A stretch of 64,000 nucleotides of DNA from Batillaria attramentaria. Taxonomy: Eukaryota > Mollusca > Gastropoda > Batillariidae. The position numbers and the translations under genes were made by a program. The notes under the pieces were generated by a model. The model was not told where the DNA came from. It made no database searches and was given only the letters and a program-made list of their open reading frames with translations. The stretch covers positions 374,501 to 438,500 of the forward strand of contig JACVVK020000214.1 of NCBI GenBank assembly GCA_018292915.2, read 5' to 3'. This document shows, in pieces, positions 43,801-46,515 of this stretch (its first letter is position 1; each line of letters starts with the position of its first letter).

Positions 43801-46515
43801 GGTGGAAAAGGACGTTAAACCCCCAAACACCCACCCACCCTCGTGGTCTAATAGCAAGCTTAGACGTTCAGCCAGCATTTATGCTTAAGAAAAAGGGAAT
43901 ACCCTTCTCAGTGTTTCTCCGTCTAGCCCAAAATACACAATCATTCTGTTTCCTGAACCCGTCGTCATGGGGAGGATTATTGATCAGGTTATTGTCAGGT
44001 GATAGGGCAGTCCATCCTCCCTGAGATACTGGTCAAGGCTTCAATGTAGAGTGTGAACATTAAACTGTCAGAATTTGAACATTCAAGGTAAACCTGCTTA
44101 AACTGAAGAGAGAGAGAGAGAGAGAGAGAGAGAGTGAGAGAGAGAGAGAGAGAGAGAGAGAGGGGGGGGGGGGGGGGGGAGAAACTTGTTCTACTGTTAC
44201 TTGAATACTCCTCACCTCACTTACTCCATTTCTCTTTGAGGCTGTCGGTGCAGAAATGTGTTGTCTGGAACACACACACACACACACACACACACACACA
44301 CACACACACACACAGACACACACACACACACACACACACACACACACACACACACACACACACACACACACACACACACACACCGTGTGAACCTGTTTCT
44401 GAGCTTAGATAAAGTAATTCTTCTGTTAACCTGTCGTATGTCGAATAATATATAAGTCGTGGTTCAGTTTCAAAACTGGTTATCACATTGTGAGAACTTC
44501 TGTTTTTCAGTTGCTGGTTGCTCTTCCCAGCAAGATGTGTATGTTGACGTCAAAGACATCCAGAAGAGGAAAAGAAAGGCAAAACGAGGTCACTAATACA
44601 TTTACATTCTAACAAATTGAAGCCTGACTCAAACTGCGTGAGATCATATGATTGCTAATATCATAAGCAATGTTACACATATCACGACTTACGAACATTT
44701 TTATGCGATTGTTACTGCTTAACAATTCACAAGACGATTATTCCAGAAAATACAACAGTATGTGTATACATGCACATAATGCCAGATACCCATCCAATGT
44801 TGTAATGGCCAGGAGAGGAGGGAGGAGATTCAGCTCTTGAAGTGTCAGCTTGATCTATCAAGACAGTGCCACGTTAGTTTCAATGTTGATCTAGTTGTAA
44901 CATTGCTTGGCTTCTACATGATTATACTTACTTGATTTCTTCAGTCGAACTTTTCAGACACGCTGACTGAAATCAAATCAAAATGACACTGATATAACCT
45001 GACCTTTTGCAGATGGGGCAACTAACGCTGTGTCGGAGGATTTGGTAAGTTGTTGAAATGTGATTGTGGTGTCTGAAATACTTTTATTTTTGTTCCTATT
45101 TCTTACCGAAAAGCCTGTTATTGAAACATAAACTGTGTCAGTGTGCATATCACGTTTTGCATGTTCTTCCTGACATGTAAAGGGCAGTGGCTGAAGGGAC
45201 ACTTGAAACCCGGTACTGACAAGTACCAGCTCAAAATGTGAGCCGAAGTGCTTTACAAAGAGGCACATATCAGTTTGACACGGCTGTCGAGTCTTTGCAA
45301 GCGGCCAGTTGTACAGATCACTTCCCTGTTGATAATTCCTCAGTAACACACACACACACACACACACACACACACACACACACACACACACACACACACA
45401 CACACACACACACATGAGAGAGAGAGAGAGAGAGAGAGAGAGAGAGAGAGAGAGAGAGAGAGATAACAGGCCGTGTAATAACCAGGAAACATGTGACACT
45501 GCACCAGATCGTGTCGTTGAATAGACGAAGCAGAGAACAGTGAAGTGACTGTCGTGGCAGCTAGCCAACAGCGGCACAACACACACACACACACACACAC
45601 ACACACACACACACACACACACACACACACACACACACACACACACACACACACACACACACAGACAGAGACAGAGAGAGAGTATAGTGAAACTAATGTT
45701 CGCATAAAATATGCAGTTAATGTGATAACTGCAACATCATATATATTGAAATCATAAAGACTTTTTCATGGTGCTTTTTGACATTAACATAAATACATAA
45801 ATACAGCCAACCACAACACTTTCTCTTAAACTACACTACTGAAAGTGAATTACACACATACATTCATTTTGACTGAATCATACAGTATGTATTTTTGTAT
45901 ATCAAGCAAAAGAGAAACCGACTTCAAATCCCGAATGGTCGGAAAATTATGTTATTGATGTACAATGACGACATCGATTTTCATGCTCATGAATTGTCCA
46001 CTAAACAAAAAAAAAAAAAAAATGAAAAAAAAAAAATGAAAGGAAAATATATTTTAGCAAAATTAAAAGATAACGAGCAAAACACTGCATCAGCTTCATG
46101 TGATGGTTCAGGATGGTTTTATGGTAGGTATGGATGTATGTTACGTATTTAGATAGGTGGGCACGTATGTGTGTGTGTGTGTGTGTGTGTGTGTGTGTGT
46201 GTGTGTGTGTGTGTGTGTGTGTGTGTGTGTGTGTGTGTGTGCATTTGTATCTATGCACTTGTATGCGTCTGTGAGCATTTAATGTGCGTCAGTGTATTTC
46301 ATCAATGTATGAATGCATCTCTGAAATGTCTGCATTTTCTCAAATAGGACAAAGACACTACCGCTGAAGATAAGACGGAGGAAGGGCTGATGTATGTACA
46401 ATTGGATTTCAAAGGCAGAAAACCTCGAAATCTCACCATCCAGCCTCCACCACAAACTGACTACGCAGAAGTGAACTTCCAGGCCGACCCTGCTCCATCT
46501 CTTGATGATGAGTGA
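34811..46515 (+). CDS. Gene C: Ig-superfamily receptor with ITIM and ITSM tail
   Basis: Twelve exons give 1749 coding bases, 582 residues. These are signal peptide 1-23, noncanonical Ig-like D1 to 137, Ig D2 to 243, noncanonical D3 from two exons to 346, a Thr/Pro stalk to 367, a membrane helix 377-399 with RKRKR, and a 180-residue tail from six exons. Tail tyrosines are Y466 (ETYVNI, YxN), Y501 (DVYVDV), Y543 (LMYVQL, a canonical ITIM) and Y566 (TDYAEV, matching the ITSM pattern). In vertebrate leukocyte receptors such a pair recruits SHP-1 or SHP-2, so an inhibitory surface receptor is inferred. It is 5' to the gene D membrane exons, head-to-head, and its upstream DNA, first four exons and introns duplicate gene B. 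Confidence 0.88.
35071..35400 (+). CDS. Gene C exon 2, noncanonical Ig-like D1
   Basis: Acceptor ttatgtgcag is followed by gtgcaacactccag, 14 bases that gene B lacks. They restore frame after the phase-1 signal exon. The domain reads RTVEFNVWVYRDQGG, TCTCEDNGRFTLHKK, SRWTWSSDMFATK. Confidence 0.86.
35484..35540 (-). mobile_element. SINE family 2 fragment shared with gene B
   Basis: Same remnant and intron position as 22627-22690. Confidence 0.75.
35684..36001 (+). CDS. Gene C exon 3, Ig domain D2
   Basis: Phase 1-1. LNISCTWDRGNPPV and CTDAGFIQCVAPGASHN; about 90 percent identical to gene B D2 (about 11 differences in 106 by hand). Confidence 0.9.
36292..36451 (+). CDS. Gene C exon 4, D3 first half
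   Basis: Phase 1-2. SILEDQTSEFNVTGDSVNVS and on to GNTKDCLR. The B-strand cysteine is replaced by Phe. Confidence 0.87.
36605..36765 (+). mobile_element. SINE family 2 copy
   Basis: tRNA-Arg(TCT)-like head: ggttgtcgaatggtagagcg, loop cttctaa, B box gagttcgatccc. It ends in gggacgttaaaccccc. Absent from the gene B intron, so it inserted after the duplication. Confidence 0.88.
36922..37070 (+). CDS. Gene C exon 5, D3 second half
   Basis: Phase 2-1. GTPPDLVLTVRLDNVTSEDE, then GRWKLGVSNDAG: an Ig F strand lacking the cysteine. Confidence 0.86.
37231..37293 (+). CDS. Gene C exon 6, stalk
   Basis: DHPSSGPAETTTEPIKDQTE: a Pro/Thr/Ser spacer, phase 1-1. Confidence 0.82.
37460..37526. repeat. (TG)n microsatellite
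   Basis: Pure TG run about 50 bp upstream of the transmembrane exon. Confidence 0.96.
37578..37694 (+). CDS. Gene C exon 7, transmembrane
   Basis: PQEHPESTG, then IIIGAVILVASILVCAVGAG, then IYTARKRKR. Phase 1-1. Confidence 0.9.
38110..38226. repeat. (CT)n(CA)n(CT)n microsatellite
   Basis: Compound run abutting the 5' edge of the LINE fragment. Confidence 0.96.
38226..39165 (+). mobile_element. CR1-like LINE, 5'-truncated, antisense-free intron insertion
   Basis: One frame to the stop at 38790 encodes the reverse-transcriptase C-terminal region: DDQLKWEPHLEKL, SHIDYTSNLWDKC, LPRLDIFKTSLSFSGSLSW. The 3' end is aataaacgtttcagtcagtc, a short tandem-repeat tail rather than poly-A, as in CR1-type elements. 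Same orientation as gene C; a relic. Confidence 0.85.
39295..40485. mobile_element. Second pogo/Tigger-like non-autonomous element
   Basis: 1191 bp bounded by TA duplications. The ends are cagtcaaacctg inverted, each followed by a ggcggtcacc segment. No transposase frame. It includes a (GA)n run near 40037. Confidence 0.8.
40486..41338. other. Gene C intron, nothing recognised
   Basis: Only a GGT/GGGT-rich stretch near 40970-41015 and a (GA)n run at 41243-41268. Confidence 0.6.
41339..41485 (+). CDS. Gene C exon 8, cytoplasmic
   Basis: NGNQPDDDGPRDMIIPQQHQ and on to GAAEASGNA. No tyrosine. The donor gtgagt runs into (CA)n(CG)n. Confidence 0.8.
41632..41707. repeat. Perfect 29-bp inverted repeat, 18-nt loop
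   Basis: Arms 41632-41660 and 41679-41707 are exact reverse complements (ending aaatacttat and starting ataagtattt). In gene C intron RNA this would fold into a 76-nt hairpin. Confidence 0.93.
41900..41950. repeat. G-rich tract
   Basis: Runs of G broken by single T or C in a gene C intron, a potential G-quadruplex. Confidence 0.85.
42184..42288 (+). CDS. Gene C exon 9, first tyrosine motif
   Basis: GRDPADGSETYVNISTVKKN. YVNI is a YxN-type SH2 site, Y466. Phase 1-1. Confidence 0.85.
42488..43211. mobile_element. MITE family ctgggccc, second copy
   Basis: Shares ctcgaactaaactagctcta and the ends with the 29.1-kb copy. It is interrupted by another element and by a (TTTA)n run. Confidence 0.75.
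42759..43158. mobile_element. Nested MITE, ends ggcgatgtcacac
   Basis: 400 bp. The ends ggcgatgtcacac and gtgtgacatggcc are inverted with one mismatch. The inside repeats aaaacatgtttt palindromes. It lies inside the ctgggccc element, so it inserted later. Confidence 0.72.
43657..43830 (+). mobile_element. SINE family 2 copy
   Basis: Well preserved: gggatggtcgaatggtagag, cttctaa loop, a duplicated gtgagttcgat, gatcccggctgg, and the body to gacgttaaacccccaaac. Confidence 0.88.
44106..44383. repeat. (GA)n, poly-G and (CA)n microsatellites
   Basis: (GA)n to 44162, a G-run, then (CA)n at 44271-44383 with one interruption. In a gene C intron. Confidence 0.96.
44511..44588 (+). CDS. Gene C exon 10, second tyrosine motif
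   Basis: VAGCSSQQDVYVDVKDIQKR, followed by a basic KRKAKR. Y501 has +3 Val but Asp at -2. The donor G|gtcact is weak. Confidence 0.78.
45013..45044 (+). CDS. Gene C exon 11, short linker
   Basis: A 32-nt exon encoding DGATNAVSEDL, phase 1 to 0, donor gtaagt. Confidence 0.75.
45348..45662. repeat. (CA)n, (GA)n and second (CA)n
   Basis: Three long runs at 45348-45413, 45415-45462 and 45579-45662. Confidence 0.96.
46168..46240. repeat. (TG)n microsatellite
   Basis: TG run about 110 bp before the last gene C exon. Confidence 0.96.
46348..46515 (+). CDS. Gene C exon 12, ITIM and ITSM
   Basis: EEGLMYVQLDFKG carries the ITIM (Leu-x-Tyr-x-x-Leu), and PQTDYAEVNFQA the ITSM-like Thr-x-Tyr-x-x-Val 23 residues later. 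It ends PSLDDE, TGA. The acceptor is ctcaaatag. Confidence 0.88.
   Translation, partial: DKDTTAEDKTEEGLMYVQLDFKGRKPRNLTIQPPPQTDYAEVNFQADPAPSLDDE

What the first reader, a model, noticed from the sequence alone, without database searches (positions are those of the whole stretch)
46348..46515. Invertebrate Ig receptor tail with ITIM plus ITSM
The last exon of gene C encodes LMYVQL (ITIM) and, 23 residues later, TDYAEV (ITSM pattern TxYxxV). Two more tyrosine motifs (ETYVNI, DVYVDV) lie upstream. This is the spacing and order of PD-1, Siglec and SLAM-family tails. Together with three extracellular domains and one membrane helix it predicts an inhibitory surface receptor outside vertebrates. Motifs and reading frame are seen; function is inferred.
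Basis: partly seen in the sequence, partly recalled or inferred. Interest (0 to 1): 0.86.

Follow-up and report, generated by a model that had tools for sequence, protein, structure and literature searches.

The report
Snail immune-type receptor with inhibitory-type tail
A mud-snail gene encodes a predicted cell-surface receptor whose tail carries two conserved switch motifs like those of vertebrate inhibitory immune receptors, and it belongs to a large snail receptor family in which another kind of tail is found far more often.

Summary
Window 46348-46515 is the last of 12 exons of a coherent 582-aa receptor model; it encodes LMYVQL and TDYAEV, tyrosines 23 apart. The genome is Batillaria attramentaria, a gastropod. 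Nine places in it encode this tail module; the eight with intact frame all keep both motifs, a hydrophobic +5 residue and the spacing, under purifying selection; the ninth is frame-broken. The genome also has an SHP2 homologue (N-SH2 79 of 96 identical to human). SHP2-type inhibition is the best-supported mechanism but is inferred. ITIM receptors outside vertebrates are already in print, so that headline is not new. New here: 12 other Ig2 domains are 84-94% identical to this gene's; the five I could follow lead to an unrelated, ITIM-free tail, which has 87 matches in the genome against 9 for the ITIM-ITSM tail (queries differ in length). This resembles a paired-receptor system. Expression, function and conservation in other species are untested.

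The parts
34811..34892 (+). exon 1: signal peptide MDLTQKQNLCLITLLSLCLTPTCSTET, ends phase 1 at CAT|GTAAGT
   Evidence: counterpart in gene B at 21953-22036
35071..35400 (+). exon 2: first extracellular domain (Ig1, Ig-type by inference; W in place of YxC)
   Evidence: no credible Pfam match; related domains in other genes
35684..36001 (+). exon 3: second extracellular domain (Ig2)
   Evidence: (Pfam Ig_2 E 0.0013, below the curated cut-off)
36292..36451 (+). exon 4: first half of third domain (Ig3a)
36922..37070 (+). exon 5: second half of third domain (Ig3b)
37231..37293 (+). exon 6: stalk
37578..37694 (+). exon 7: membrane helix IIIGAVILVASILVCAVGA and basic stop-transfer
   Evidence: only hydrophobic stretch over the threshold in the 582-aa model
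40505..40563 (+). optional exon-like stretch (LLATQRAQIETNGRRPGQP), homologous to an exon of P0002; phase does not fit exon 7
41339..41485 (+). exon 8: cytoplasmic tail 1
42184..42288 (+). exon 9: tail 2 with ETYVNI (YxN, Grb2-like site; pattern recalled)
44511..44588 (+). exon 10: tail 3 with DVYVDV
45013..45044 (+). exon 11: tail 4 (32 bases)
46348..46515 (+). exon 12: ITIM LMYVQL(DF), ITSM TDYAEV(NF), stop
21953..26897 (+). gene B: neighbour with a near-identical 5' part (signal, Ig1, Ig2, Ig3a), then a second Ig2/Ig3 unit, membrane exon and an unrelated ITIM-free tail

Best explanation
Gene C is a type I Ig-superfamily receptor of Batillaria attramentaria. Ligand binding by its three outer domains clusters it; a Src-type kinase phosphorylates Y543 and Y566; the two phosphotyrosines engage the tandem SH2 domains of the snail's SHP2, which then dampens signalling by neighbouring receptors. 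Genes of the B type share its outer domains but carry a different tail with YxxP and YxN sites, so C may be the inhibitory member of a paired-receptor-like family. Shown: gene model, motifs, their conservation within this genome under purifying selection, presence of SHP2, shared outer domains, two tail classes. Inferred: phosphorylation, SHP2 binding, inhibition, shared ligand, blood-cell expression.
For: In-phase 12-exon model with signal peptide and one membrane helix. Nine tail copies in the genome, 8 intact, all 8 keeping L-x-Y-x-x-L-x-F and T-[DE]-Y-A-x-[VI] with Y-Y spacing 23. For C against its C703 17-kb paralogue, motif codons show pS 0.864 and pN 0.039 (8.5 synonymous, 1.5 nonsynonymous changes), linker codons pN 0.212; in 14 of 15 pairs among six of the eight copies motif pN is below linker pN. 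Tail positions -2 to +5 around the tyrosines are identical to P0002 at 24 of 32, the rest of the tail at 53 of 141. The residues at -2, +1, +3 and +5 of Y543 (L, V, L, F) and acidic +4 match the SHP2 N-SH2 preferences in PMC8007070. The SHP2 homologue has SH2-SH2-PTP pieces in order on one strand of C121; its N-SH2 is 79 of 96 identical to human PTPN11, with 12 of 13 checked positions the same. The annotated paralogue P0002, from a gene set built with transcript evidence among others, has the same chain of tail exons plus one.
Against: No transcript, protein, phosphorylation or binding data. All four tyrosines also fit YxxPhi. ETYVNI is a YxN site, so the tail is not purely ITIM-like. TDYAEV lacks the hydrophobic -2 that N-SH2 prefers, and PMC8591604 computed that F at +5 is not better than L. 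The search with the tail region of the 5.8-billion-protein collection found nothing, but it also missed P0002, which scores 99 bits locally, so it says little. All relatives found are in the same genome; conservation across species is not shown. The four C214 tail copies were not linked to outer domains. Copy counts may include unpurged haplotypes of a highly heterozygous assembly.
Confidence: 0.62

Rival explanations
1. Adaptor-coupling or dual-function receptor: the tail recruits Grb2-like and Src/PLC-type SH2 proteins and activates phagocytosis or adhesion, with SHP2 acting as a positive relay (as in growth-factor signalling) rather than an inhibitor.
For: ETYVNI is a YxN site, seen as ETYVNV in P0002 and DTYVNV in the C712 copy. 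SHP2 acts positively in many receptor pathways (recalled). B-type tails have DDYLNP and FYQNTQ.
Against: No ITAM spacing (recalled: YxxI/L, 6-12 residues, YxxI/L) in the tail: the tyrosines are 35, 42 and 23 apart. The last exon (33 of 56 identical to P0002) is among the best conserved; exons 8 and 9 are at 28% and 35%, though exons 10 (13 of 26) and 11 (6 of 10) are close to it.
Confidence: 0.2
2. Sorting tail: the YxxPhi motifs are AP-2/AP-1 signals that set endocytosis of an adhesion receptor.
For: YVQL, YAEV, YVNI and YVDV all fit YxxPhi (sequence; pattern recalled).
Against: Conservation reaches beyond YxxPhi: the -2 residue (L or T), the +5 F/L and the exact 23-residue spacing hold in 8 of 8 intact copies; YxxPhi needs none of these (recalled).
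Confidence: 0.12
3. Non-functional or rarely expressed copy in a fast-turning tandem array; the motifs are inherited, not used.
For: One of nine tail copies is frame-broken (C712). Gene B lacks an Ig half-domain. The optional exon at 40505-40563 does not fit the phase. Gene C itself was not returned from the protein collection.
Against: Every exon of gene C is open and in phase. B and C both keep an open frame across the signal/Ig1 junction despite different indels. Purifying selection on the tail.
Confidence: 0.06

Closest known systems
Oyster CgIgIT / CgIgIT2 and CgSiglec-1 (Crassostrea gigas)
   Same: Mollusc Ig receptors reported as inhibitory: IgIT and CgIgIT2 by title in the reference list of PMC11999971, CgSiglec-1 in a passage and reference title of PMC5877582. 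That CgIgIT bears an ITIM is recalled; no passage I saw says it.
   Different: Bivalve proteins, sequences not compared here. No tandem array with a second tail class in the passages seen. The text of PMC11999971 calls CgIgIT2 ITAM-bearing while its own reference title calls it inhibitory.
Botryllus FcoR / fester receptors and Hydractinia Alr
   Same: Multigene receptors with ITIM and other tyrosine tails; putative activating and inhibitory members in one locus (passages of PMC12065747).
   Different: Tunicate and cnidarian allorecognition; FcoRs have a V-type Ig, a sushi and two C2-type Ig domains. No sequence kinship tested.
CD33-related Siglecs (Siglec-7/9) and PD-1
   Same: ITIM then ITSM or ITSM-like motif; 23-25 residues between the tyrosines (recalled).
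   Different: Vertebrate; V-set N-terminal domain (recalled); no tail match in solved structures, a weak test.
Vertebrate paired-receptor families (KIR, LILR, SIRP, FcRL; recalled)
   Same: Tandem array, near-identical outer domains on ITIM and non-ITIM members.
   Different: Here the non-ITIM tail is long, with YxxP and YxN sites, and by eye gene B has no charged residue in its membrane helix; kinship not tested.
Amphioxus BbLcLRR
   Same: Non-vertebrate receptor with ITIM/ITIM-like motifs that recruits SH2 phosphatases when phosphorylated (abstract and passages of PMC8211107).
   Different: LRR ectodomain; tested in Jurkat cells.

Membership tests
Ig superfamily | Ig fold with C...W...DxGxYxC | tested here: inconclusive
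   Open frame with Ig2: Pfam Ig_2 E 0.0013, 19.3 bits, below the 27-bit cut-off; frames with Ig1 and Ig3 halves: no credible match. Low-confidence model of the paralogue P0002 (pLDDT 51.5): by title all but two of the 50 Foldseek rows shown are Ig-domain proteins or their complexes, none at E <= 0.001. Ig1 model useless (pLDDT 41).
ITIM-bearing inhibitory receptor | Strict ITIM [SIVL]xYxx[ILV] in the cytoplasmic tail, conserved | tested here: met
   LMYVQL; 8 of 8 intact copies in this genome keep L-x-Y-x-x-L
ITIM-bearing inhibitory receptor | Single-pass type I membrane protein with signal peptide | tested here: met
   (splice model and hydropathy; no dedicated predictor)
ITIM-bearing inhibitory receptor | Phosphorylation-dependent recruitment of SHP1/SHP2/SHIP | not testable with these tools
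   An SHP2 homologue exists in the genome; binding needs an experiment
ITSM-bearing receptor (SLAM/PD-1 sense) | TxYxx[VI] in the tail | tested here: met
   TDYAEV; 8 of 8 intact copies keep T-[DE]-Y-A-x-[VI]
ITSM-bearing receptor (SLAM/PD-1 sense) | Switch by SAP/EAT-2 binding | not tested
   SAP homologue not looked for
PD-1, Siglec or SLAM family by descent | Sequence kinship of tail | tested here: inconclusive
   No meaningful solved-structure match to the tail or the tail profile; tails are rarely in structures, and the protein-collection search with the tail region was unreliable
Paired-receptor system | Near-identical outer domains on ITIM and non-ITIM members in one cluster | tested here: met
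   B and C: 250 of 292 residues identical; in a 19-row tree C's Ig2 lies inside the clade of B-type first units, support 97/92, apart from the three other ITIM-type rows, which are long branches
Paired-receptor system | Opposite signals from shared ligands | not testable with these tools
   none

The most novel reading that the evidence does not exclude
A mud snail runs a genome-wide paired-receptor system: one very large, tandemly duplicated Ig receptor family (at least 150 matches to the Ig2 domain, 87 to the B-type last tail exon) in which a handful of members (9 places) have a conserved SHP2-binding ITIM-ITSM tail while sharing, by exon shuffling or gene conversion, the ligand-binding domains of a non-inhibitory majority. 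This would be a protostome counterpart, evolved independently, of KIR/LILR/Siglec clusters.
Probability: 0.4. Interest if true: 0.87.

Novelty: new variant of a known kind. Interest (0 to 1): 0.68.

Why it matters
Inhibitory Ig receptors with ITIM and ITSM tails are usually told as a vertebrate story. A gastropod family with the same tail grammar, an SHP2 partner in the same genome, and many sister receptors with shared outer domains and another tail would show that 'paired' positive/negative receptor sets can arise wherever an Ig family expands. It also gives a concrete, testable candidate for how snails set activation thresholds in cells that meet parasites and microbes.

Tried and rejected
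Tried without use: structure of Ig1 (pLDDT 41); search with the tail region, uninformative because it missed P0002, which scores 99 bits in a local check; solved-structure search of the tail and of the tail profile, chance-level matches only; Ig1 tree of 10 rows (a split Ig1 hit at C214:340 kb was left out), nothing resolved. An 85-residue open frame at 34639-34896 that looked like an extra N-terminal exon was dropped: its frame is not kept between B and C and the same donor serves the signal exon in another frame. P0002 was first taken for an orthologue from another snail; its contig length (214322) equals that of C703 in the window's own assembly, so it is a paralogue. An early B/C comparison used a wrong start for B's Ig2 and ended with an error; its exon/noncoding identities (819 of 879, 887 of 997) used C coordinates only; dN and dS were redone (292 codons, dS 0.096, dN 0.073; Ig1 alone 0.080 and 0.084; no sign of positive selection overall). 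The minus-strand gene at 13-14.4 kb gave nothing convincing with Pfam. Considered and rejected: plain chance for the motifs; motif inheritance without selection.
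Full report
What is there. The reported exon (46348-46515, plus strand) is real and is the last exon of a 12-exon gene model. I rebuilt it from splice signals and phase: signal 34811-34892, Ig1 35071-35400, Ig2 35684-36001, Ig3 in two exons 36292-36451 and 36922-37070, stalk 37231-37293, membrane helix 37578-37694, tail exons 41339-41485, 42184-42288, 44511-44588, 45013-45044 and 46348-46515 (sequence). The product is 582 residues. Hydropathy shows one membrane helix. The tail of 176 residues has four tyrosines, in ETYVNI, DVYVDV, LMYVQL and TDYAEV; the last two are a strict ITIM and an ITSM pattern with the tyrosines 23 residues apart.

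Chance. In 100,000 shuffles of the tail an ITIM followed 15-35 residues later by an ITSM came up at 0.00017, an ITIM alone at 0.096, an ITSM alone at 0.018, and all tyrosines being YxxI/L/V at 0.00035. The distance range was set after seeing the data, and a genome has many tails, so this alone is not decisive.

Where it is. One protein in a 5.8-billion-protein collection matched: P0002, a partial hypothetical protein of Batillaria attramentaria (34% identity over 75%, E 1.6e-61; again the only match; both calls scored only about 8,000 candidates). The window's own assembly has 863 contigs and 715,342,989 bases, matching the published B. attramentaria assembly of 863 scaffolds and 0.715 Gb (PMC10382545, abstract and passages), and P0002's contig length equals that of C703 in it. 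The window is therefore from this caenogastropod and P0002 is a paralogue. That gene set was made with EVidenceModeler from ab initio, transcript and protein evidence; whether a transcript supports P0002 is not known.

Conservation. P0002 has every tail exon in the same order, one exon more, and all four tyrosines. Identity to gene C by exon is 35-40% in Ig2 and Ig3, 33% in the stalk, 26% in the membrane exon, 28, 35, 50 and 60% in tail exons 8-11 and 59% (33 of 56) in the last. Residues -2 to +5 around the tyrosines are identical at 24 of 32 positions against 53 of 141 in the rest of the tail (Fisher p 1.2e-4). Genome searches with the last exon gave seven places at E up to 0.001 and, with P0002's core, nine at E up to 0.0012: C214 at 36, 149, 209, 239 and 421 kb (gene C), C703 at 17 and 194 kb, C685 and C712. 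The C712 copy is frame-broken between the two motifs. In the other eight, G-L-x-Y-[VG]-[QE]-L-x-F and T-[DE]-Y-A-x-[VI] are kept with identical spacing. I compared 15 pairs among six of the eight. For C against the C703 17-kb copy the 16 motif codons have pS 0.864 and pN 0.039, the linker codons pS 0.671 and pN 0.212. In 14 of 15 pairs motif pN is below linker pN; the exception is the near-identical C703 (194 kb)/C685 pair, which differs by one base. Synonymous sites are near saturation in the five pairs that include gene C (core pS 0.76-1.0) and lower in the others (0-0.76). The C703 (194 kb) and C685 copies may be haplotypes at this exon, although the Ig2 domains found near them differ.

Partner. 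SH2 (PF00017) gave 57 matches and Y_phosphatase (PF00102) 155 in the genome (in the second 150 of 422 candidates were scored). On C121, minus strand, three SH2 pieces (769027-768902, 764922-764812, 762858-762697) are followed within 21 kb by two phosphatase pieces (754763-754638, 747761-747606). The first two, joined, are 79 of 96 identical to the PTPN11 (SHP2) N-SH2, with PTPN11 chains at the top of the solved-structure list and PTPN6 next. Of 13 positions checked, 12 are the same and K35 is T; R32 was my own addition, the others are named in the passages of PMC8007070. The third piece is closest to the PTPN11 C-SH2, and the last phosphatase piece matches PTPN11 and receptor phosphatases about equally; the other phosphatase piece was not compared. 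The splicing of this gene was not modelled. PMC8007070 (passages) reports that the N-SH2 prefers hydrophobic residues at -2, +1, +3 and +5 and acidic ones at +2 and +4. LM-Y-VQLDF fits at -2, +1, +3, +4 and +5; TD-Y-AEVNF at +1, +2, +3 and +5. PMC8591604 (passages) notes a preference for aromatic +5, but its calculation favoured W, not F, over L.

Family. Gene B, upstream in the window, is a tandem relative: 1.9 kb including introns is 88% identical, and the shared protein part 250 of 292. At the signal/Ig1 junction the two genes carry different indels yet both stay in frame, which argues that both are coding. B then has a second Ig2-Ig3 unit, a membrane exon and a different tail. In 20 fetched stretches and the window the B layout recurs along C214 and C336. 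B-type tails keep DDYLNP (DDYLSP in one locus), and the copies other than gene B also have FYQNTQ beyond the aligned part; 0 of 4 tyrosines in a representative copy fit an ITIM. The fuller B tail exon (93 aa) has 87 matches, 36-99% identical (all 142 candidates scored; five with a stop inside the match; two neighbouring C722 rows may be one place), against nine for the shorter ITIM-ITSM query, so the ratio is rough. The Ig2 domain of gene C has 150 listed matches, all at E 4.5e-9 or better (150 of 320 candidates scored); 12 besides itself are 84-94% identical, and the five of those 12 that I could follow (C214 at 341, 351 and 397 kb, C336 at 232 and 241 kb) are followed by B-type tail exons. 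In an Ig2 tree of 19 rows (all Ig2 hits) gene C lies inside the clade of B-type first units (97/92), while the other ITIM-type rows, two on C703 and one on C685, lie elsewhere on long branches. So the outer part of gene C belongs with B-type genes and its tail with P0002: the halves have different histories, as in paired-receptor families.

How it most likely works. Ligand clusters the receptor, a Src-type kinase phosphorylates Y543 and Y566, SHP2 docks with both SH2 domains and lowers signalling by co-engaged receptors, perhaps the B-type ones. Only the anatomy, the selection and the presence of SHP2 are shown. The upstream YxN tyrosine suggests a Grb2-like site as well. Rivals are adaptor coupling with SHP2 as a positive relay, and plain YxxPhi sorting; the fixed spacing, -2 and +5 residues argue against the latter.

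What is known. ITIM-type receptors outside vertebrates are in print: Botryllus FcoR and Hydractinia Alr (PMC12065747 passages) and amphioxus BbLcLRR (PMC8211107 abstract and passages). Oyster IgIT, CgIgIT2 and CgSiglec-1 are reported as inhibitory (reference titles and passages in PMC11999971, and PMC5877582); their ITIMs are recalled. My searches combined ITIM with mollusc (14), mollusk (103; 10 of 11 listed), oyster and SHP-2 (45), ITSM and invertebrate (23), Hydractinia (32), 'immunoreceptor tyrosine-based' with gastropod (46), and the IgIT names (20, 30). By title and abstract start, the listings showed no gastropod ITIM-ITSM receptor; the library holds open-licence papers only. Siglec-7/9 and PD-1 spacings are recalled.

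Limits. Ig1 and Ig3 are Ig-type by inference. The four C214 tail copies were not linked to outer domains. No relative from another species was available, so cross-species conservation is open.

Noticed in passing
window 54593-59341 (+): One 1582-aa open frame of a retroelement with zinc knuckles, integrase-like and reverse-transcriptase-like parts; by eye the integrase part precedes the reverse-transcriptase part, unusual for Ty3-type elements. Observed only.
   Followed up: no
window 21953-26897 (+): Gene B lacks the second half of its first Ig3 domain and ends with a different C-terminus (no FYQNTQ) compared with the other B-type copies.
   Followed up: partly
window 13053-14375 (-): Minus-strand open frames that look Ig-like by eye next to long CA repeats; a different receptor family, no convincing Pfam match.
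   Followed up: partly
window 28676-28873 (-): Minus-strand open frame with a strong membrane helix (VVIIVIVVVIVLAVIVAAFVCW); no outer domain recognised nearby by eye or with the family profiles.
   Followed up: partly
G000 C12:2908719-2985423: Five Ig2 relatives at 29-34% identity in a separate cluster, possibly an older branch of the family.
   Followed up: no
window 8680-9751 (+) and 17391-18991 (+): Tc1/mariner-like transposase pieces and a non-LTR reverse-transcriptase-like piece, by eye.
   Followed up: no
G000 C42:2322766-2324401 (-): Three strong SH2 matches close together, two of them about 10 codons apart in one 307-aa open frame; not identified.
   Followed up: no
A protein search restricted to the tail region did not return P0002 although it scores 99 bits in a local check; negatives of such region searches should be read with care.
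   Followed up: yes
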